Origin: Rudaea sp. 3F27F6
GTDB lineage: Bacteria > Pseudomonadota > Gammaproteobacteria > Xanthomonadales > Rhodanobacteraceae
Length of the DNA: 64,000 nt
Direction of reading: 5' to 3'
Assembly (NCBI RefSeq): GCF_005503555.1
Contig: NZ_SCNG01000002.1
Span: forward strand, 930,001 to 994,000
The notes under the pieces were generated by a model. It had not been told where the DNA came from. It did not search any database and was given only the letters and a program-made list of their open reading frames with translations. The stretch's first letter is position 1; each line of letters opens with the position of its first letter. The translations under genes were made by a program, and so were the position numbers. Positions 35,146 to 51,409 of the stretch are shown one piece after another.

Positions 35146-35201
35146 TCATTACCTGGGCATGGGGGTTCCGTGCCGACGCGGCGCGGCGCGCTCCCTAGCA
35201 T
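35135..35201 (+). promoter_or_regulatory. Second copy of the tandem-repeat promoter
   Basis: GTTACC (35137) and ATTACC (35148) lie 11 bp apart, followed by GTGCCGAC (35170-35177) and TAGCAT (35196-35201). All distances equal those of the promoter at 33540-33606. The downstream start is 60 bases from the -10, against 62 in the first copy. Confidence 0.7.
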
Positions 35202-35260
35202 CGGTGTGCCACACAAGGGTAGCGCCGCCGCTACGCGTCCACGCAACAAAGGTATCCATC

Positions 35261-37066
35261 ATGTTCTCCAGCAATCCCCCCGCCGCGCGTTTGCGCGGCC
35301 TCGCCGCCCGGATTTTCCTGCTCGCCTCGAGCCTGTTGCCCGTCGCCGCCCTGGCGGCCGCACCCGCAGTGACGAAAATCCAGGGCTCCCCGCTGACTGT
35401 TCACGTCGGCGCCGACAATTCGTTCCAGATCGTCAACAGCGCCATCCCGGGCGTCGGCCAGATCTACCCGACCGACGCGACCGGTACGGCGGACATGGGT
35501 TTCTTCGTACGCACGGCGGACCAGTTCTATTCTCCCGATTTCAGCAATCATCCCGCCGGCAGCGCGACCTCGTTCAGCGGCAACACGCCGTTCACCTCCA
35601 CCTCGCTCGGCGCGGTGACGGGCACCGGCACGGCGGCCGACCCGTTCACCGTCAGCGCGGCGTCGACGCTCGGCACGAGCGGCATCGCGGCGACGCTCAA
35701 AGTGCAGTACGTCAACGGCAACAACTACTTCACCAAGGCGCTGACGCTGACCAATTCGGCGGCGAGCCAGAACGTGAAGATCTTCCTTGGCGCCGACATC
35801 TTTCTCGCCGCGAGCGACCGCGGTCGTCCCTACATCGAGGCAGCCTCGACCAGTCCCGGCGGCCAGAGCGGCGACGGCTGCCCGAACACCGATTCGCAGA
35901 AGTACACGATCCTGCTGATCCCGCAGACGCCGCCCGACGCCTATGTCGCGCGCGGTTTCAGCGCGGTCTGGAGCGAAATCGGCCAGGGCCAACTGAGCAA
36001 CACGGTCAGCGCCACCGAATGCATCGACAACGGCGCGGCGCTGCAGTGGAACCGCGCTCTGCCGGCCGGCGCCTCGGTGACCGTGCAGACGGCGATCTCG
36101 TTCGGCGAAATTCCCGCGTTCGCGCAGTTCGATCTGCGCTCGATCACTCCGGCCAGCGGCACCGCGGGCAACAGCGTCAACGTTACGCTCGGCGGCCTCG
36201 GCTTCAAGACCGGCACGACCTTCGACTTGGGCGCCGGCGTTTCGGTGACGAATCTCGTCGTCGTCGATGACAAGACGGCGACCGCAACATTGGTGATCGC
36301 ACCGAGCGCCGCCGCGGGCGCGCGCGACGTCGGCGGCACGCAAAGCGCGGGCGGACTCAACGCGAGACTGCCGAACGGCTTCACCGTCAACGCGGCCCAG
36401 GGCACCACGTATACGGTCACGCCGAGCGCGGGTGCGAACGGAACGATCTCGCCGGCAACGGTGCAGACGGTCGCGGCGAACGCCACCGCGACGTTCACGG
36501 TCAGCGCGAACGCAGGCTACACCGCGTCGGTCGGCGGCACCTGCAACGGAACCCTGACCGGCAGCACCTATACGACCCAGCCGGTCACCGCCAACTGCAC
36601 GGTGGTGGCGAGCTTCACGCCGGTCATAGTGGTGACGCCGACCACGACCAAACTCGTTGCGACGCCAAATCCGCTGCAGTTTGGCAACAGCCTCGGCCTC
36701 ACCGCCACGGTAACGTCCGGCACGGCCACGCCGCGCGCGCAAGCGGCAGCGCTCGCTGCGGCGATAAGCGGCACGGTGACCTTCAGCGCCGATGGTGCCG
36801 TGATCGGCACGGCTCCGCTCGGCACAAACGGTGCTGCGAGTTTCACAGCCAACGGATTGAGCGTAGGCACGCACAGCCTGATCGCGACCTACTCGGGCGA
36901 CGCGACGAATGCGGCCAGCAGCAGCACGCCGGTCCTCGTGACCGTGACCGCTGCGCCGGCTGCGCAAGCCGTGCCCGCTCCGACCTTGTCGACCTGGGCC
37001 GTGCTCGCAATGATCGCCGCACTCACACTCGCACTCGCCGCGCACCTGCGCCGCCACGGCGCCTGA
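35261..37066 (+). CDS. Exported Ig-like repeat protein with IPTL-type C-terminal sorting tail
   Basis: A 601-residue exported protein. Signal peptide to about residue 32; an N-terminal beta domain (about 35-280) with a DSQKYTILLIPQ block; an IPT-like segment (SITPASGTAGNSVNVTLGGLGF); a Gly-rich GxxGTISPATVQTV repeat; and a bacterial Ig-like domain (about 470-570, GTVTFSADGAVIGTAPLG). It ends in PAPTLSTWAVLA, a hydrophobic helix and HLRRHG, a variant of the IPTL-CTERM signal. Promoter shared in design with the lipoprotein gene. It is probably exported and processed at the membrane; function unknown. Confidence 0.82.
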   Translation: MFSSNPPAARLRGLAARIFLLASSLLPVAALAAAPAVTKIQGSPLTVHVGADNSFQIVNSAIPGVGQIYPTDATGTADMGFFVRTADQFYSPDFSNHPAGSATSFSGNTPFTSTSLGAVTGTGTAADPFTVSAASTLGTSGIAATLKVQYVNGNNYFTKALTLTNSAASQNVKIFLGADIFLAASDRGRPYIEAASTSPGGQSGDGCPNTDSQKYTILLIPQTPPDAYVARGFSAVWSEIGQGQLSNTVSATECIDNGAALQWNRALPAGASVTVQTAISFGEIPAFAQFDLRSITPASGTAGNSVNVTLGGLGFKTGTTFDLGAGVSVTNLVVVDDKTATATLVIAPSAAAGARDVGGTQSAGGLNARLPNGFTVNAAQGTTYTVTPSAGANGTISPATVQTVAANATATFTVSANAGYTASVGGTCNGTLTGSTYTTQPVTANCTVVASFTPVIVVTPTTTKLVATPNPLQFGNSLGLTATVTSGTATPRAQAAALAAAISGTVTFSADGAVIGTAPLGTNGAASFTANGLSVGTHSLIATYSGDATNAASSSTPVLVTVTAAPAAQAVPAPTLSTWAVLAMIAALTLALAAHLRRHGA

Positions 37067-37186: not shown

Positions 37187-37414
37187 GGGTCTAGTCAAAC
37201 GCAATCGATGCCTCGATTGCTCCATTCGACGATCGCCCGCACTGACGGTCCAATGGCACCCGCTGAGACGGATCAAATTCCGGCCGCTCAAAAAGTTTGA
37301 TCCGCTCGAAGCGCTTCGCCGCCTATTCGTTGCGTCGTATGGGCACAACCCAGTCCGCGGCGATTCGCGTGTTCAAAGGTTCAATTTTTCGGCCAGCCCT
37401 TATTGCGGGCATTC
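37187..37414. other. A/T-richer intergenic stretch with two hairpins
   Basis: No gene is evident. It holds perfect small dyads: GCAATCGA/TCGATTGC (37201-37220) and CGGATCAAA/TTTGATCCG (37269-37277 and 37296-37304). These lie at the left edge of the lanM locus and downstream of the minus-strand gene at 37415. Confidence 0.5.
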
Positions 37415-37924
37415 TCAAGTTTCGGGCGCGCTGCACAATGCCTTGCGATTCTCTGCGTCCAATGATTCAAATTTCGAGTTCTGTGCAAAGAATGGTCCGA
37501 GCCATTTGTCTTCGTGCGTAAAGGCCATGGTCCACGCCAGATTGGGAGGGAAAATGAGCCAATCCTGCCACGAACAGGCAGCAGGACGATTCCTCGTAAC
37601 GAAACCTTCTCGGCGATTGTTGGAAATGACGACGAATTCCGGTGCCACCTGTTGTGCGTACAAAGCGGCGGCATCGCCACGCGAAACGCTGGGGAAACGT
37701 TTGTAGCTGAAGACGTGCCAAATAAACTCGTTGAAGTGTATACCTTCGCGGTCTCTACCAAAGATCGCCATCCAACGATCGATATGCGCTTTGACTTCTG
37801 AAACCAGGAGAAGGCGTTCTATCGGCCCCGGAGTAACAGAGACCTTCGTCGATTTTTGTTTTATTTTCCCTTTAACGTCCATGGCACGCTCGGCTGCATC
37901 ACGCTTAATGCCTAGATCAGGCAT
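37415..37924 (-). CDS. DUF4275-like hypothetical protein beside lanM
   Basis: A 169-residue soluble protein. The second half, IWHVFSYKRFPSVSRGDAAA, then APEFVVISNNRREG and MAFTHEDKWLGPFFA, looks like the DUF4275 pattern (W..FSY, then THE..GP.F); I am moderately sure of the family. ATG at 37924 has AAGGG 7 bases upstream; ATG at 37942 is the alternative. GC is lower than in the backbone genes. It lies 69 bases downstream of lanM on the same strand, so it may be in the same transcript. An immunity role is only a possibility. Confidence 0.7.
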   Translation of the reverse strand: MPDLGIKRDAAERAMDVKGKIKQKSTKVSVTPGPIERLLLVSEVKAHIDRWMAIFGRDREGIHFNEFIWHVFSYKRFPSVSRGDAAALYAQQVAPEFVVISNNRREGFVTRNRPAACSWQDWLIFPPNLAWTMAFTHEDKWLGPFFAQNSKFESLDAENRKALCSAPET

Positions 37925-37993
37925 CACCTCGCCCTTCGGCATTGAAGTTTGTACGAAAACCGCAACCGTTGTCTTACGAGCTTCGCAACGAGC

Positions 37994-40864
37994 TCAAGAA
38001 AAATCGCCGAGCGTCAGCACCGACGGCAATGCACTCGCCGGATTCATCTTGAGCAACTGATAGACGATGCCGCCCGCGCCGGTCATCAATCCGGGCAGGA
38101 ACATATCGCGCGAGACGCCGCAGATCGCGCCGTGGTCTTCGAGGCTCGTGAGCAGGCTCGCCGTCATCTCTTCGTCCGTCACTCCGCGCGGTCCTTCGCC
38201 GGCCGCGGCGGCCTTGCTGAGCAGTTCCCACGCGCTGAAATCGCCGTGACAAAGGCAGTGATCGAGCCCTCGTCCGTGTAACCACGTCGCTGCGACCGCA
38301 CGCCGCACTTGTTGCCGTGCAAACGGATCGGTCAGGGCAGGATCCAAATCCAGATGCGCGAGCCCGATGCCGACGGAGCCGTTGCACCATGCCGCTGCTG
38401 TTTTCTCGTTCGCACCGTGACGCAGATCGCGCCAGTTTTCACGCTCGGGATCGAACAACGATTCCTCGAAAAGAAATGCGGCGCGAACCAAATCGCCATA
38501 GCGATCGTCCATCGACGCACGCATCAATTTCGTCAGCGACCAGGCGATGCCGGTCGCGCCATGAGAAAAGCCGCCGACGCCGTCGGGCCAGCGGCTGTCA
38601 CTCCAGTGGGCGCGGTCTTGATTGCGCTTCGCGCGCTCATCGAGCAGGCGTGCCAAATCTTTTGCGTTTTGCAGATAGCCCTCGTCGCCCGTCACACGAT
38701 GCAGCGCAAGCAACGGCGGAATGGCGCCAGCAATGCCGGACAAAATATCGTGAGTCGTATCGGCGATGGCGGCCTGTGGAATAAGCGCGGCCAGCGAGCG
38801 CGCGCGATCGAGATTCGCGTCCGGCTCGAATCCGTGATGCGCAAGAAACAAATGCGCCCAAATTTGTGAGCCGAGTCCGACGTATGCGCCGGGCAGGCGC
38901 GGCCGCGGTTTCACTTTCTCCGCGGCTTCGCTGCGGAATCTCGCCTCGGCGAGATTGAGCGTGCGCACGACCGAATCGAGATGGCGTTCGAGTCCGTCCA
39001 CCGGATCGGCCCGCTCGGCTTTCACTTCGCTCAGGTACGCCGCGATCGTCACCGCCACGCCGGCAAGACCGTTGTACAGATCCTGGCCGATCGGCTGGAT
39101 CGATCGGCTCGTCGGCGTCACGACCGGAGCGATCCAGGCAATACTGCCGTCTTCTGCGTGTATCGCCGCATCGAGTATCTGCCGCAGGATCGACGCGGCC
39201 TGGCGGCGACGCCTCGCATCGAGATCGTCCGCGCGCGGATGCGACGGAAGCAAGGAACGGTGAACAGGCAGCACGCCCTCGTTGACGTAGGCGCTGATAA
39301 GAGTCGCCTGGATCACGCGCCGATCGAGATCGAAATCCGCGCCGCGCCAGCCGTCGAGCGCCTGTTCGAGCAGGTTGCAGCGATCGAGCCAGCGCGTTCC
39401 GCGCGGCCCGTCGAGCCGGCCCGACGTGACCAGGGTCGAGTAATAAGGAATATCGCCTACGAGCAGATCCTGCACTTCCGCGTCGATCACCGTGCGGTCG
39501 TCCGGTGCGATCGTAAGATTCGCCGCCATCTTTTCGAGCAGCCCGGCAGCGCGGCCGCGAGCCGCCGCCTCGTCATGCAGCGAGGTGGGATGCCAAAGCA
39601 TGCGGCCCAGCTCGACATAGACGCTCGTGGCGCGCGGCACGACGCGCACGCGGCAGTCGGCGAAGGTTTGCAGCCGCGTGCGCAACGAGCCGGTCGCATC
39701 GAGTTTGCGCAGATGCCCGGTCATCTCGTCAAACGCGGACAGAACGAGCGGCCAGTAGCGTGCGAGTACCGGATCGACGCTCGGTTGATTCTGCGTCGAC
39801 GGCGCATCCACCTCGACCATGCCGATGCGCGCCTCGTCCGTGCCGGCGCCGACGATCTGCGGCTGTGGCATGCGCGGCTGCTGACCCCGCAGCAGGCCGA
39901 CGCCGGAATTGTCGACTCCCTGCCAGCCGACGGCGCCCCCACGGCTCGGCAACAGGCCGGTGGCGAGAACGGTGTCGGCAAGCACATGCGCGGCCCGATC
40001 GAACGCCTGCCCAAGGCCCGAATCGCGCGGCGGAATTTTCGGCGTGAACAGAGTTTCGCAATCGATCACCACGGGATTCGGCCCCACCGCAATCAGGTTC
40101 TCGGCATGCAGGTCGCTGCCGCCGAGCAGTCTCATCAAGGCCAGCCAGTGACCGATGCCGCGATAGAACTGCTGCAATTCGGCATCATCGCGCGCGTAGC
40201 GATGCGCGACGAATTCACACCAACCGTGCTCCATGCGCGCAACGACATCGGGCACGCGCATCGACGTCGAACAACCGTCGTTTCTGAGTTCGGCGATGAA
40301 TCCGTGCAGCGCCGCGTCGACCATCGTCGGCCGCGGCTTGTAGACCAGTTGGCCGGCGTCGGTGCGCAGGATCGCTACGGTCCTGCCGCCGCGGTGACTG
40401 TCGCCGGCCGAGAAATCGAGTTGAAGCAGCGCTGTCGGCACGCCACCGAATACGGATGCAAGCGCATTTTTGTCACTCGCCCAATCCCGCGCGAATTTAT
40501 GCGCCGCCGAGCAGATGTTTGCGACCACGCGCGATACGCGGCCGGCGAGAGCGGGATAGTGCGAGGACAAGCCTGCCCAGAACGTCGCTTCGGAGGAAAG
40601 CGCGCAGAAATGGTCCCAGCGCTGCGCGCTGCTTTCGCCGCAAAGGCGTCCGCTCACGCGCGCGGCGTTCAGTTCGACGATGAGCAGGCGGCAGAGTTTG
40701 CCGTGCAGTGTGGCAACGAGGTTGTCGCGCGTGGCGCCGACGATCAGATCGCATTCGTCGACGCCGAGGCCGCCGAGAGCGGCAAGCTGGGCTGCCAATC
40801 CGTCCAGATCGGCTTGGTAAAGGCAGCCCAGCGATGAGTTGAAATTGCGGGTGGTCGTAGTCAC
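37994..40864 (-). CDS. lanM: Class II lanthipeptide synthetase LanM
   Basis: A 956-residue bifunctional enzyme that phosphorylates and eliminates Ser/Thr and then adds Cys thiols, making lanthionine rings. The N-terminal dehydratase (DUF4135, about 150-560) has LVYKPRPTMVDAALHGF, GGSDLHAENLIAVGPNPVVI (catalytic-loop-like DLHAEN) and CETLF. The C-terminal LanC-like cyclase (about 610-956) has GFSHGATGIAWSL and the zinc ligands Cys827 (WCNGSVG), Cys872 and His873 (CHGD). All are intact and the length is normal. GTG start 15 bases after the precursor stop. No LanT transporter, peptidase or LanFEG immunity genes are in the window. Confidence 0.95.
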   Translation of the reverse strand: MTTTTRNFNSSLGCLYQADLDGLAAQLAALGGLGVDECDLIVGATRDNLVATLHGKLCRLLIVELNAARVSGRLCGESSAQRWDHFCALSSEATFWAGLSSHYPALAGRVSRVVANICSAAHKFARDWASDKNALASVFGGVPTALLQLDFSAGDSHRGGRTVAILRTDAGQLVYKPRPTMVDAALHGFIAELRNDGCSTSMRVPDVVARMEHGWCEFVAHRYARDDAELQQFYRGIGHWLALMRLLGGSDLHAENLIAVGPNPVVIDCETLFTPKIPPRDSGLGQAFDRAAHVLADTVLATGLLPSRGGAVGWQGVDNSGVGLLRGQQPRMPQPQIVGAGTDEARIGMVEVDAPSTQNQPSVDPVLARYWPLVLSAFDEMTGHLRKLDATGSLRTRLQTFADCRVRVVPRATSVYVELGRMLWHPTSLHDEAAARGRAAGLLEKMAANLTIAPDDRTVIDAEVQDLLVGDIPYYSTLVTSGRLDGPRGTRWLDRCNLLEQALDGWRGADFDLDRRVIQATLISAYVNEGVLPVHRSLLPSHPRADDLDARRRRQAASILRQILDAAIHAEDGSIAWIAPVVTPTSRSIQPIGQDLYNGLAGVAVTIAAYLSEVKAERADPVDGLERHLDSVVRTLNLAEARFRSEAAEKVKPRPRLPGAYVGLGSQIWAHLFLAHHGFEPDANLDRARSLAALIPQAAIADTTHDILSGIAGAIPPLLALHRVTGDEGYLQNAKDLARLLDERAKRNQDRAHWSDSRWPDGVGGFSHGATGIAWSLTKLMRASMDDRYGDLVRAAFLFEESLFDPERENWRDLRHGANEKTAAAWCNGSVGIGLAHLDLDPALTDPFARQQVRRAVAATWLHGRGLDHCLCHGDFSAWELLSKAAAAGEGPRGVTDEEMTASLLTSLEDHGAICGVSRDMFLPGLMTGAGGIVYQLLKMNPASALPSVLTLGDFS

Positions 40865-40879
40865 CCGATCAACGCATCG

Positions 40880-41071
40880 TCAATTGCAGCAGTTGTCGTG
40901 AACGCGCGTGCCCTGCGTGCAGGCAAACGTGGTCGTGCTCATTACCGTGGAACCTACGATATCCGATTCCACATAGTCGCCGCCGAGATAGAGAGGGCCG
41001 GCAGGGCTGTCCACCGACGAGTCCGTGCGCCACTGATCGATCAACATCGAGCTTTCCAGATCATTACTCAT
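40880..41071 (-). CDS. lanA: Class II lanthipeptide precursor
   Basis: A 63-residue peptide immediately before lanM. The acidic leader (MSNDLESSMLIDQWRTDSS) continues to GG at 30-31 and GS at 40-41; the C-terminal part, TVMSTTTFACTQGTRVHDNC plus CN, has Cys51, Cys61 and Cys62 and eight Ser/Thr from S41 to T55. Leader cleavage after GG31 or G40 would give a 32- or 23-residue core with up to three lanthionine rings. AGGAG lies 7 bases before the ATG. I do not recognise the core as a known lantibiotic. Pairing with LanM and composition make the call strong. Confidence 0.9.
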   Translation of the reverse strand: MSNDLESSMLIDQWRTDSSVDSPAGPLYLGGDYVESDIVGSTVMSTTTFACTQGTRVHDNCCN

Positions 41072-41097
41072 AACCTGTCTCCTATTGACGTGGATTT

Positions 41098-41123
41098 GAA
41101 TAGCACTCGAATGAGCGCTATTC
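41098..41123. promoter_or_regulatory. 26-bp dyad at the transcription start of the lanthipeptide operon
   Basis: On the minus strand it reads GAATAGC-G-CTC-ATTC-GAG-T-GCTATTC: ten paired bases per arm with one mismatch. It begins about 7 bases after the extended -10, so it is either an operator across +1 or a hairpin at the 5' end of the mRNA. Confidence 0.6.
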
Positions 41124-41130
41124 GCGATCG

Positions 41131-41139
41131 ACTATATCA
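41131..41139 (-). promoter_or_regulatory. Extended -10 promoter of the lanthipeptide operon
   Basis: Minus strand TGATATAGT fits the extended -10 pattern TGnTATAnT. No -35 is recognisable (ATCGAG at 17 bp), as allowed for extended -10 promoters. Confidence 0.55.
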
Positions 41140-41274
41140 CCGCGCGGAATGGGCTCGATATGCATTGCACCATATGCGAACTCGATGCGGTTATTTCAGA
41201 TTTTTTGAACGACAAGGCAATGAAAGTGGAAATACTTATTAACGATCGCCTTGCGCATCTCCGCAAATAAGCAC

Positions 41275-41295
41275 GCGCATCGAAGCGCGATGCGC
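41275..41295 (-). terminator. Hairpin downstream of dnaB
   Basis: Arms GCGCATCG and CGATGCGC around a 5-base loop, 20 bases after the dnaB stop on the minus strand. The following GTGCTTATTT is only weakly T-rich. Confidence 0.45.
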
Positions 41296-41314
41296 TGGTG
41301 CTATTCCGCGAAGA

Positions 41315-42700
41315 TCAATCGTAACTGCCGTAACTGTCGGCGGCGAAGTTCTCGAACTTCGTGTAGTGACCGAGGAAGGTCAGCTTGACCGAACCGGTCG
41401 GGCCGTTACGCTGTTTGCCGATGATCACTTCGGCCTGGCCTTTATCAGGCGAATCGGGGTTGTAGTACTCGTCGCGGTAGATGAACAGGATCACGTCGGC
41501 GTCCTGCTCGATGGCGCCCGATTCGCGCAAGTCGCTCATCATCGGACGTTTGTCGGTGCGCTGTTCGAGCGAGCGGTTGAGCTGTGACAGCGCGATCACC
41601 GGCACATTGAGTTCTTTCGCCAGCGCCTTCAGGCCGCGCGAGATTTCGGAAATCTCGGTCGCGCGGTTCTCCTTGTTGCCGGGCACCTGCATGAGCTGCA
41701 GGTAGTCGATCACGATAAGGCCGAGATCGTGCTCGCGCTTGAGACGACGCGCGCGCGCGCGCAATTCGCCGGGCGACAGCGCCGGCGTATCGTCGATAAA
41801 GATTTTCGCGTCGGACAGTAGCGTGATCGCGCTGGTCACGCGCGGCCACTCCTCTTCCTGGATGTCGCCGGTGCGCAAATGCTGCTGGTTGATGCGGCCG
41901 AGCGAGGAGATCAAACGGAACGCGAGCTGCGAGGCCGACATTTCCATCGAGAATATGGCGACCGCCTTCTTCGACTTGATCGCCGCGTGCTCGGCCATGT
42001 TCACCGCAAGCGCGGTCTTGCCCATCGACGGACGCGCGGCAAGGATGATCAGATCGGACGGCTGCAGACCGGCGAGCATATCGTCGAGATCGGCGAAGCC
42101 GGTCGGCAGACCGGTGACCGCACCCTTGTTCTCGAAACGGTGATGGAGGATCTGAAATGCTTCTTTCACCGCCGCGCGCATCGGCGTGAATCCCTTGCGC
42201 CCGCGCGCGCCGGCTTCGGCAATGCGGAACACTTCGAGTTCCGCGCCTTCGAGTATCTCCTGGGTCGAACGGCCTTCCGGCTGGAAACCGTCGCCGGCGA
42301 TCTTCGTGCCCGCTTCGATGAGCTGGCGCAGCACCGACTTCTCGCGCACGATGTCGGCGTAGGCGCCGATGTTCGCCGCGCTCGGCGTCGCGTTGGCGAG
42401 TTCGATCACGTAGCTCGAACCGCCGACGAGTTCGGACAGCTTGTTCGACTCGAACCAGTCGGCCAGCGTGACCGCGTCGCAGGGCATGTTCTTGTTCGAC
42501 AGCTCGCCGATCGCGCGGAAAATCAGACGATGGTCTTTGCGATAGAAATCGTCCTCGACGAGCTTGTCGGCAATGCGCTCCCAGGCGTTCGCATCGAGCA
42601 TGAGTCCGCCGAGCACGGCCTGTTCGGCGTCGATCGAATGCGGCGGCACACGCAGCGCATCGATGCGCCCGGCGGAAAAGCGGTCTGGGGAAACGGCCAT
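41315..42700 (-). CDS. dnaB: Replicative DNA helicase DnaB
   Basis: A 461-residue hexameric helicase. N-terminal primase-binding domain from PPHSIDAEQAVLGGLML; C-terminal RecA-like motor with LAARPSMGKTALAVN (Walker A), VIDYLQLM (Walker B) and SQLNRSLEQR. ATG at 42700 is the canonical start; the frame upstream is antisense to the LuxR gene's region and not coding. No intein. Belongs to the usual rpsF-rpsR-rplI-dnaB gene order, here interrupted by two plus-strand genes. Confidence 0.98.
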   Translation of the reverse strand: MAVSPDRFSAGRIDALRVPPHSIDAEQAVLGGLMLDANAWERIADKLVEDDFYRKDHRLIFRAIGELSNKNMPCDAVTLADWFESNKLSELVGGSSYVIELANATPSAANIGAYADIVREKSVLRQLIEAGTKIAGDGFQPEGRSTQEILEGAELEVFRIAEAGARGRKGFTPMRAAVKEAFQILHHRFENKGAVTGLPTGFADLDDMLAGLQPSDLIILAARPSMGKTALAVNMAEHAAIKSKKAVAIFSMEMSASQLAFRLISSLGRINQQHLRTGDIQEEEWPRVTSAITLLSDAKIFIDDTPALSPGELRARARRLKREHDLGLIVIDYLQLMQVPGNKENRATEISEISRGLKALAKELNVPVIALSQLNRSLEQRTDKRPMMSDLRESGAIEQDADVILFIYRDEYYNPDSPDKGQAEVIIGKQRNGPTGSVKLTFLGHYTKFENFAADSYGSYD

Positions 42701-48225: not shown

Positions 48226-48616
48226 GTATGCGCTCGTCGCGCAGACATGCCGCCGTCGTGATCGCGTCGTCGCGCATTCCCTCGACCAACGCGCAGCACG
48301 TCGATGCCGGCATCGAGCGCACCGGCGAATTCGTCGAGATGAAAATCCGAACGTCGTTCCGATCATGAAGGACCGGCTTCGCAGATAAGCCCACATTCGC
48401 CGACATGCACACGCGCAAGCCGCCGCATGTCCGGAACCGTCACCGCAGCACGTACTTAGCTTCCACGCCGGAACGCATCGGTCGCGCGATCGCTTCGCGA
48501 TGCCGCTTCAACGACGCATCGATTCCGGCGCGACGGCGCAGCGACTTCGATCCGAATCGAAACTCCGATCGGGTCGGCGCCGAAAGGACTAACCATCAGT
48601 GTCTCCAGAGGATCTT
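48226..48616. other. Intergenic stretch before the ASH-repeat protein gene
   Basis: About 390 bases with no gene I can support. It has a small TTCGAT/ATCGAA hairpin at 48546-48561 and an AGAGGA ribosome site at its end. No promoter like the GTTACC tandem type is present. Confidence 0.45.
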
Positions 48617-50347
48617 ATGTCAGCGAAGTCGTTCTTCCACGTGCCGATGCGATCGCCGAAATGGCTGCTCGGCTTTATCGCCCTCGGCCTTCTTTTGTCG
48701 ACCTTCTGCATGGCGACGACGGCGCGAGCCGCTCCCGGAGACTTCGCCGTGTCGTCTACCACGCTCGATTTCGGCAATGTGGGGGTCGGTACGAGCGCCA
48801 AGCTCGCCGTGACCATCACCAACGTGTCGCAGGTTGCGCAGATACCGGCCCTGGCCGGCGGCGGCCTCTCTGACAAGACGTATTTCGACGCGAACCAGAC
48901 CTGCGGGGGACGCACGCTCCAGCCCGGTGAAAGTTGCATACTCAACTACATCTTTCATCCCGGCACGCTCGGTGCGCGCTCAAACGGCACATCGTTCAAT
49001 ATCGGCAGCACCAGCTACACGGTCAGTCTGTCGGGCATCGGCATTCTACCGTTGACCGTATCGCCGACGGCGCTCGATTTCGGCAATGTCATGGTCGGTA
49101 CGAGCACAAGCCTCAATGTGATCATCAAGAATGTGTCGAATGCCGTGCAGACTCCGACCTATGGCGGCGGCGGCGTCTTCGATACGGCTAATTTCGGCGG
49201 AGTACAAAATTGTGTGGGCAAAGCACTGCAGCCCGGCGACAGTTGCGTCTTCACCTATACCTTCCATCCCGCTGCGGTCGGGGCCAAATCGGACCACACT
49301 GCGATCAGCATCGACGGCACCACCTATCCGAACAGCACCAGCTACTCGATCACCTTATTCGGCACCGGCATCGGCACGGCGAAATACAGCGTCGGCGGTA
49401 CGCTCAACGGACTGGTCGGCAGCGGCCTCGTGCTGAACCTGAACTCCGGCGTGCAGACCTTGCCGATTGTGGCCAACGGCAAATTCGCTTTCCCGACCGC
49501 GCTCGCCGACGGCTCCGCCTACGCGGTCAGTGTCAACACACAGCCGTCCGCCCCGGCGCAAGTCTGCTCGGTGACCAACGGCGCCGGCAATCTGAATGGC
49601 GCCGACGTTACCGGCATCGTGGTCGAATGCGCGCCGCCGACCGTCAACGGCGTCTGCGGCAGCGACAACGGCAGCACGCTCTCGGTCACGCCGACTCATC
49701 TGTGCAGCGCGGGCACGCCGAGCGCGGTGAGCGGCTCGGGCCCGTGGAACTGGAGCTGCGCGGGCGACCACGGCGGCAGCACGGCGACGTGCTCGGCCAA
49801 TGCGAGCGCCGGCAAGCTGCAACTGTCCGGCAACGGCAATGCGATCGGCAACGGCGCCGCCACACCGAACGTGAGCAACGGCACCGACTTCGGCCATATC
49901 CAAGCCGGCGCGCAGGCGGCGCATAGCTTCTCGATCGGCAACATCGCGAGCGTCAGCCCGGCCGCGACCGGCAAGCCGCAAGCGTCGACGGATAATCTCG
50001 CTCCTCAGGCCGCGGGCGATCTCGTCGTTTCGAGTATCAGCAGCGACAATGCGGCCTTTGTCATCGGCAGTGTACCGGGCACGATCGCGCGCGGTGCCAA
50101 CGCGGCGTTCACGCTGAGCTATCAGCCAGCCGCGATCGGCGCGCACAACGCAACGATCACGATCCGCAGCAACGATCCTTCGGCGCCGAGCTTCACCTTC
50201 GCGGTGACGGGCCAGTCAATCGCGGCGCCACCGGTCACACCTGCCGCACCGGCGCCAGCACTCTCCCTCTGGGCGCTTTTCTTGCTCGCGGGCATGCTCG
50301 GTTTCGCGGCTTGGTTGGGACTGCGGAAAATCGGCACGGCACCGTAA
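48617..50347 (+). CDS. Exported ASH-repeat protein with IPTL-like sorting tail
   Basis: A 576-residue exported protein. Signal peptide to about residue 38. Two N-terminal ASPM-SPD-2-Hydin-like repeats carry the mark TTLDFGNVGVGTSAKL and TALDFGNVMVGTSTSL, each followed by a Cys pair (QTCGGRTLQPGESC, QNCVGKALQPGDSC) that may form a disulfide. A third, divergent repeat (TDFGHIQAGAQAAHSF) precedes the tail. The C terminus has PALSLWALFLLAGML and LGLRK, an IPTL-CTERM variant. Clear AGAGGA site 4 bases before the ATG. Confidence 0.82.
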   Translation: MSAKSFFHVPMRSPKWLLGFIALGLLLSTFCMATTARAAPGDFAVSSTTLDFGNVGVGTSAKLAVTITNVSQVAQIPALAGGGLSDKTYFDANQTCGGRTLQPGESCILNYIFHPGTLGARSNGTSFNIGSTSYTVSLSGIGILPLTVSPTALDFGNVMVGTSTSLNVIIKNVSNAVQTPTYGGGGVFDTANFGGVQNCVGKALQPGDSCVFTYTFHPAAVGAKSDHTAISIDGTTYPNSTSYSITLFGTGIGTAKYSVGGTLNGLVGSGLVLNLNSGVQTLPIVANGKFAFPTALADGSAYAVSVNTQPSAPAQVCSVTNGAGNLNGADVTGIVVECAPPTVNGVCGSDNGSTLSVTPTHLCSAGTPSAVSGSGPWNWSCAGDHGGSTATCSANASAGKLQLSGNGNAIGNGAATPNVSNGTDFGHIQAGAQAAHSFSIGNIASVSPAATGKPQASTDNLAPQAAGDLVVSSISSDNAAFVIGSVPGTIARGANAAFTLSYQPAAIGAHNATITIRSNDPSAPSFTFAVTGQSIAAPPVTPAAPAPALSLWALFLLAGMLGFAAWLGLRKIGTAP

Positions 50348-50485
50348 ACGATCTTCTCGATGCCGCAGCGACGGAACTTTCGCCGCTGCGGCATCGCTTC
50401 GTGCAACGCCGATTTCCCCACGCACTCTGCATTCTTCGATTGCGACAGTTCCGCGAAAGCGGAAATGCCGAATAGAATGCGGCAC

Positions 50486-51409
50486 ATGACAACAAACATC
50501 GTTTCGATCAAAGGCGTCAGCAAAACCTACAAGGGCGGACTGCAGGCGCTCAAGTCGGTCGATCTCGACATCCGCCGCGGCGAGATCTTCGCCCTGCTCG
50601 GGCCGAACGGCGCCGGCAAGACCACCCTGATCAGTATCGTCTGCGGCATCGTCAACCCGACCACGGGCACGATCACCGCTGACGGCCACGACATCGCGCG
50701 CGAGTATCGCGCGGCGCGCAAGAAAATCGGGCTCGTGCCGCAGGAGCTGCACACCGATGCCTTCGAGAGCGTGATCGCCACCGTGAGCTTCAGCCGCGGC
50801 CTGTTCGGCCATGCGCCGAATTCTGCGCACATCGAAAAAGTGCTGCGCGACCTGTCGCTCTGGGAAAAGCGCGACGCCAAGGTGATGACCTTGTCGGGCG
50901 GCATGAAGCGCCGCGTGCTGATCGCCAAGGCGCTCGCGCACGAACCGAACATCCTATTTCTCGACGAGCCGACCGCGGGCGTCGACGTCGAGCTGCGCCA
51001 CGACATGTGGCAGATGGTGCGGCGCCTGCGCGAGAACGGCACGACGATCATCCTGACCACGCACTATATCGAAGAAGCCGAGGACATGGCCGATCGCATC
51101 GGCGTGATCCGCAAGGGCGAGCTGATCCTCGTCGAAGACAAGGCCGTGCTTATGCGCAAGCTCGGCAAGAAGCAGCTAACGCTACAACTGCAGACGCCGC
51201 TGCGGCAGATTCCCGCAGAGCTGGCCGCACTGCCGCTCGAGCTGTCGGCCGACGGCAGCGCACTGACCTACACCTTCGACACGCAGCGCGACGAGACCGG
51301 CATCGCCGAACTGCTGCGCTGCCTTGCCGCGCACGGCATCGATTTCAAAGACCTGCATTCGAGCCAGTCTTCGCTCGAAGACATTTTCGTCAGTCTGCTG
51401 CGGAGCTGA
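50486..51409 (+). CDS. ABC exporter ATP-binding protein (ABC-2 type)
   Basis: A 307-residue ATPase: Walker [11 protein letters not shown], signature LSGGMKRR, Walker [14 protein letters not shown]-loop LTTHY. The C-terminal extension after residue 225 is typical of DrrA/NatA-type exporters. It precedes its permease by 3 bases. Start at MTTNIV (50486); further upstream the frame is not coding-like. The substrate is unknown; drugs or lipids/polysaccharides are typical. Confidence 0.95.

What the first reader, a model, noticed from the sequence alone, without database searches (positions are those of the whole stretch)
37994..41139. Minimal class II lanthipeptide locus with an unrecognised core peptide
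A 63-residue Cys/Ser/Thr-tailed precursor is encoded 15 bases before an intact LanM, with its own extended -10 promoter. LanM has the zinc ligands Cys827, Cys872 and His873 and the DUF4135 dehydratase motifs. The core (S41-N63) ends in a vicinal Cys pair and has a TTT cluster, giving up to three rings. No LanT, LanP or immunity genes are in the window, so export and maturation would depend on genes elsewhere. Lanthipeptides from the Xanthomonadales are little described.
Basis: partly seen in the sequence, partly recalled or inferred. Interest (0 to 1): 0.85.

Follow-up and report, generated by a model that had tools for sequence, protein, structure and literature searches.

The report
DUF6229 lanthipeptide precursor beside LanM
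This is a two-gene recipe for a ring-containing peptide, of a family already recognised and partly characterised in related soil bacteria, here with a tail sequence that has one ring-forming cysteine fewer than its nearest relatives.

Summary
A 63-residue precursor (41071-40880, minus strand) ends 15 bases before a complete class II lanthipeptide synthetase, LanM (40864-37994), with the reported zinc ligands and dehydratase motifs. But the precursor is not unrecognised. It matches Pfam DUF6229 (52.8 bits, cut-off 25), a family that Ayikpoe et al. 2022 (PMC9576775) identified as lanthipeptide precursors, naming the Rhodanobacteraceae type 'rhodanocins'. A 2024 preprint puts 21 of 27 unique Lysobacter class II precursors in it. 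The pairing is conserved: 61 of 61 above-cut-off DUF6229 hits in 233 genomes of the window's family lie just upstream of a LanM gene, as do 17 of 17 in a second family.

The core ...STTTFACTQGTRVHDNCCN belongs to a small subgroup with Dyella choica and D. silvatica (...TTNFLCTCGTxIHDNCCN); the LanM tree agrees. The window has Gln where these have a fourth Cys, so at most three rings can form, and its Cys spacing rules out rhodanocin's published pattern. A missing C39 transporter beside the genes is usual for this family. A well-supported member of a known kind; modification, structure, maturation and activity are untested.

The parts
40880..41071 (-). DUF6229 lanthipeptide precursor, 63 aa (leader with SPAGPLY; Cys-containing core ...STTTFACTQGTRVHDNCCN)
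   Evidence: ORF; PF19740 3.8e-14, 52.8 bits; close relatives in Dyella choica/silvatica
37994..40864 (-). LanM, class II lanthipeptide synthetase, 956 aa
   Evidence: PF13575 and PF05147, TIGR03897 585.8 bits, LicM2 6st5 6.5e-66, active-site motifs
41131..41139 (-). possible extended -10 element TGATATAGT (weak)
   Evidence: single match in the window, 0.45 expected by chance; no paired -35
41275..41295 (-). terminator-like hairpin between dnaB and the precursor, 8-bp stem; would separate the transcription units
   Evidence: consensus scan only (7 such sites found in 37300-41500, mean 4.2 in shuffles)

Best explanation
The locus makes a class II lanthipeptide of the DUF6229 family. LanM binds the N-terminal leader (conserved ...QWR...SPAGPLY...), dehydrates Ser/Thr in the C-terminal core and adds Cys51, Cys61 and Cys62 to the dehydro residues, giving up to three (methyl)lanthionine rings. 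Most likely these are one small ring from Thr46 or Thr47 to Cys51 and two overlapping rings from Thr52 and Thr55 to Cys62 and Cys61. Leader removal and export are done by proteins encoded elsewhere. Shown: the gene pair, the family memberships, the conservation of the pairing, the LanM active-site residues. Inferred: modification, leader role, ring pattern, export route, antibacterial role.
For: Precursor = DUF6229; LanM over the subfamily cut-off. Paper: the DUF6229 precursor of Dyella sp. 333MFSha, made from a refactored cluster, shows 4 dehydrations and 3 rings. 61 of 61 above-cut-off DUF6229 hits in 233 family genomes sit within 3 kb upstream of LanM on the same strand; 17 of 17 in a second family; 79 of 80 named LanM relatives have one upstream. 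The LanM tree puts the window with the two Dyella LanMs whose precursors share HDNCCN (SH-aLRT 99, quick method), so enzyme and core have stayed together. Second pair in the same genome.
Against: No product or modification was measured. The core differs from the characterised rhodanocin. 15 of 15 other genomes of the genus show neither gene, so the locus is sporadic; seven of those are under 90% complete. 6 of 60 LanM hits in the family have no DUF6229 gene. The LanM relatives came from an alignment of DUF6229-linked LanMs, so 79 of 80 is not an unbiased rate for LanM in general.
Confidence: 0.93

Rival explanations
1. The peptide is a rhodanocin in the strict sense, with the published rings Thr6-Cys11, Cys8-Ser14 and Thr12-Cys23.
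For: Same Pfam family and same bacterial family as the characterised peptide; in one alignment Cys51-Thr52 line up with the Cys-Thr of the CTGS box of related precursors.
Against: The published Cys positions 8, 11 and 23 are spaced 3 and 12 apart; those of the window, 51, 61 and 62, are spaced 10 and 1 apart. No register fits. The paper itself says DUF6229 holds at least two ring patterns. I did not see the published precursor's full sequence.
Confidence: 0.03
2. The pair is decaying: loss of the fourth Cys marks a precursor no longer under selection, and the LanM is on its way out.
For: Cys53 of the Dyella relatives is Gln here, codon CAG against TGC; the locus is absent from 15 of 15 congeners examined.
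Against: LanM is intact, 956 aa with the motifs; the precursor is 56% identical to its relatives, with leader and HDNCCN tail kept; three-Cys cores occur elsewhere in the family, for example the CAMCTGS...C type. Selection on lanM was not measured.
Confidence: 0.04
3. A variant of the main reading: the single C39 ABC transporter of the genome (contig C16) removes the leader at a Gly-Gly or Gly-Ser site and exports the peptide, so the pathway is an ordinary LanT route encoded in trans.
For: One C39 match in the genome, a full C39-ABC protein beside HlyD-like and AcrB-like genes; LGG and VGS motifs in the leader (sequence).
Against: No C39 domain was found beside any of the 149 DUF6229-bearing loci scanned, while two LanM loci without DUF6229 have one (one query protein, tblastn). 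LahT150 did not cleave the Dyella precursor despite a possible double-Gly motif. Many relatives have an ABC transporter without a recognised C39 domain instead.
Confidence: 0.2

Closest known systems
LanII / rhodanocin of 'Dyella' sp. 333MFSha (Ayikpoe et al. 2022, PMC9576775)
   Same: DUF6229 precursor modified by a class II synthetase; same bacterial family; three rings published, three Cys here
   Different: Published rings use Cys8, Cys11 and Cys23; the window Cys are spaced differently and end in Cys-Cys-Asn. The strain is listed among Luteibacter mycovicinus strains (PMC11165876, passages)
DUF6229 precursors of Dyella choica (L082/L158) and Dyella silvatica (L088/L157)
   Same: Same subgroup: TTxFxCTxGTxxHDNCCN; nearest LanM in the tree
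   Different: They have a fourth Cys where the window has Gln53; LanM 58% identical
Lysobacter DUF6229 lanthipeptides (preprint PMC11451712, passages seen)
   Same: Class II clusters with DUF6229 precursors in the same order
   Different: Core sequences are in figures and supplements that I could not see, so whether this subgroup is among them is unknown
LicM2 (PDB 6st5) and CylM (5dzt)
   Same: Homologous LanM enzymes by sequence; LicM2 over nearly the full length
   Different: Firmicute enzymes of two-component lantibiotic/cytolysin systems with LanT and LanP (recalled)

Membership tests
Class II lanthipeptide synthetase (LanM) | N-terminal dehydratase domain and C-terminal LanC-like cyclase in one chain | tested here: met
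   PF13575 residues 103-477 and PF05147 591-949; TIGR03897
Class II lanthipeptide synthetase (LanM) | Cyclase zinc ligands Cys, Cys, His | tested here: met
   Cys827, Cys872, His873; these columns are invariant in 11 aligned sequences, the window and 10 relatives
DUF6229 lanthipeptide precursor | Match to PF19740 over its curated cut-off | tested here: met
   52.8 bits against 25
DUF6229 lanthipeptide precursor | Gene directly upstream of lanM, conserved in relatives | tested here: met
   15-base gap; 61 of 61 above the cut-off (61 of all 62) and 17 of 17 relatives
DUF6229 lanthipeptide precursor | Dehydration and thioether rings in the core | not testable with these tools
   Needs co-expression and mass spectrometry
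Rhodanocin in the strict sense | Cys/Ser/Thr positions allowing Thr6-Cys11, Cys8-Ser14, Thr12-Cys23 | tested here: not met
   Pattern; window Cys at 51, 61, 62 fit it in no register
Lanthipeptide cluster with C39 LanT | C39-peptidase ABC transporter in the cluster | tested here: not met
   The genome's only C39 match is on another contig

The most novel reading that the evidence does not exclude
The window and two Dyella species carry a separate DUF6229 subgroup (HDNCCN tail) whose product has a ring topology not described before, with two rings closing on a vicinal Cys pair, and the window member has shed one ring. The pathway works without a dedicated C39 transporter, using a housekeeping or trans-acting protease and exporter.
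Probability: 0.45. Interest if true: 0.4.

Novelty: new member of a known kind. Interest (0 to 1): 0.3.

Why it matters
It ties a concrete precursor-LanM pair to a family that the Pfam copy used here still calls unknown, and shows that the pairing reaches well beyond the Rhodanobacteraceae and Lysobacter named in the passages I read. The three related precursors differ at one Cys, so they are a ready-made set for asking how LanM re-routes rings when a Cys is absent. That no C39 transporter was found beside any DUF6229 locus scanned makes leader removal the open question.

Tried and rejected
Naming relatives with the window LanM alone failed (35 pattern stretches, no relative); an alignment of 11 LanMs worked. 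The DUF4275-like ORF downstream of lanM (37415-37942) was considered as a pathway gene and left out for lack of support: no homologue in the loci then held (the named genomes came later and were not searched for it). The ABC hit about 9.5 kb from the window LanM is the ORF 50360-51409 (+), an ATP-binding subunit alone (349 aa, ABC_tran), and is not counted as part of the locus. A search of the own genome with a relative's ABC transporter gave 51 matches, the best-scoring 33% identical over 454 residues, so no orthologue can be named. The genome has 10 peptidase S8 matches, none in the window; none can be tied to this pathway. Sampling the phylum with the Pfam model found DUF6229 in 3 of 398 genomes, the window's own included, all of this order, yet the named scan found it in other groups too, so the sample understates its spread. 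One search aligned a meaningless 3-base stretch by mistake and was not used. No structure was predicted: LanM has solved homologues and the precursor is too short to gain from it.

Full report
What is there. On the minus strand a 63-codon ORF (41071-40880) with a good ribosome site (AGGAG) ends 15 bases before the GTG start of a 956-codon ORF (40864-37994). The long ORF is LanM: DUF4135 plus LANC_like domains, type 2 lanthipeptide synthetase by NCBIfam at 585.8 bits against a cut-off of 304, and homologous by sequence to LicM2 and CylM. The zinc ligands Cys827, Cys872 and His873 and the dehydratase motifs are present.

The precursor. It matches Pfam DUF6229 (PF19740) at 52.8 bits, cut-off 25. 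A full-text search for DUF6229 returned two papers. I read passages of both and one whole section (activity and structure) of the first. Ayikpoe et al. 2022 (PMC9576775) produced a DUF6229 precursor of Dyella sp. 333MFSha from a refactored cluster: 4 dehydrations, 3 rings, an NMR connectivity Thr6-Cys11, Cys8-Ser14, Thr12-Cys23, and an MIC of 126 uM against K. pneumoniae for an AspN-cut product. They proposed the name rhodanocins and concluded that DUF6229 are lanthipeptide precursors of at least two ring patterns. A 2024 Lysobacter preprint (PMC11451712) reports 72 class II clusters with 27 unique precursors, 21 of them annotated DUF6229. Searches for 'rhodanocin' (1 paper, the same one), lanthipeptide + Xanthomonad + LanM (2), lanthipeptide with Rhodanobacter/Dyella/Luteibacter (231 papers, 15 listed), lanthipeptide + Lysobacter + precursor peptide (7) and PF19740 (0) showed no further paper on this family in the listings. 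Passages of two listed papers report uncharacterised lanthipeptide clusters in Luteibacter mycovicinus, whose strain table includes 333MFSha (PMC11165876), and raised expression of lanM-type genes in Lysobacter capsici (PMC10380237); neither has the string DUF.

Conservation of the pair. In 233 genomes of the window's family, 42 have DUF6229 and 47 have DUF4135. Of 62 DUF6229 hits, all 61 above the cut-off lie on the same strand within 3 kb upstream of a LanM hit; the one that does not is below the cut-off. Of 60 LanM hits, 54 have a DUF6229 gene and 6 do not. In a 398-genome sample of the order (43 genomes with a hit), 17 further hits in a second family are all followed by a LanM-like ORF. 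A scan of named genomes with an alignment of 11 LanMs gave 107 relatives, the best 80 kept. With a profile built from my 78 precursors, 79 of 80 had a DUF6229-like ORF upstream. The miss, L180, is the same contig (751,675 bases) as L153, where the gene was found in a long open frame; my 400-residue limit probably dropped it. These loci span Pseudomonadota, Myxococcota, Acidobacteriota, Verrucomicrobiota and Actinomycetota. The query was made only from DUF6229-linked LanMs and some named loci are the same genomes as the unnamed ones, so these are not independent counts.

The core. The nearest precursors are those of Dyella choica and D. silvatica (named; precursors; 56% identity). They share the tail TTxFxCTxGTxxHDNCCN. 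Where they have a fourth Cys (TGC), the window has Gln53 (CAG), a difference at all three codon positions, so a single sequencing error does not explain it. In the LanM tree, a quick one, the window groups with these two (99) and then with a sister-family LanM (99), so enzyme lineage and core type agree. With Cys51, Cys61 and Cys62 there can be at most three rings. The published rhodanocin Cys at 8, 11 and 23 fit the window's spacing in no register, so that pattern cannot form. By an alignment with other DUF6229 precursors Cys51-Thr52 sit at the Cys-Thr of the CTGS box. My ring proposal (Thr46/47-Cys51; Thr52 and Thr55 with Cys62 and Cys61) is inference.

Export and maturation. The window has no C39 transporter and no peptidase S8; other protease types were not searched. 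15 flanking ORFs besides the pair were scanned with Pfam: only one has a transporter match, an ABC ATP-binding subunit at 50360-51409. Lack of a C39 gene is usual: of 155 LanM loci scanned by tblastn with one C39 sequence (flanks from under 5 to 10 kb; one short locus left out), two have a C39 domain nearby, and both are LanMs without DUF6229 (L122, L123). 60, the window among them, have an ABC-transporter hit without C39 somewhere in the flank, and 93 have none. In 35 of the 79 named loci in that scan the ABC hit lies 3-4.5 kb past the start of the LanM match; strand was not checked. Four examined carry ABC_tran and no recognised C39. The two Dyella loci of the window's subgroup have none. 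The window's genome has one C39 ABC transporter, on another contig, a candidate but unproven.

Promoter. TGATATAGT at 41139-41131 is the only TGNTATANT in the window, but 34 of 100 shuffles also have at least one, and no -35/-10 pair was found. It is possible, not established.

Verdict. A genuine, intact locus for a lanthipeptide of a known kind. New here are the sequence, the three-Cys variant of a small subgroup, and the wider reach of the pairing.

Noticed in passing
37415-37942 (-): A 175-aa ORF 51 bases after lanM on the same strand matches DUF4275 (35 bits, cut-off 27). Its third-position GC (0.56) is well below lanM's (0.75) and the loci held have no homologue, so it may be a later arrival.
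   Followed up: partly
L092 (G000:C10:92120-112119); precursor at G000:C10:102024-102206: Second DUF6229-LanM pair in the same genome, with a different core (...SGATTCSFSGRLCATICPCC) close to one of Dyella nitratireducens (G078) and a LanM on a distant branch of the tree, near Streptomycetaceae.
   Followed up: partly
L186 upstream of lanM: Rhizohabitans arisaemae carries at least five DUF6229-like precursors before one LanM, each with a slightly different core.
   Followed up: no
G209-G223: None of the 15 other genomes of the window's genus that were searched has DUF6229 or LanM, although the window genome has two pairs; its 5.7 Mb genome is also larger than all of theirs (2.4-5.1 Mb).
   Followed up: no
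35159-37066 (+): 635-aa protein with a bacterial Ig-like domain and a C-terminal PTLSTWAVL...RRHGA segment that looks like an IPTL-CTERM sorting tail (recalled, not tested).
   Followed up: no
48599-50347 (+): 582-aa protein whose best Pfam matches are ASH/HYDIN-type Ig-like domains best known from cilia and centrosome proteins (67.8 bits; the cilia link is recalled).
   Followed up: no
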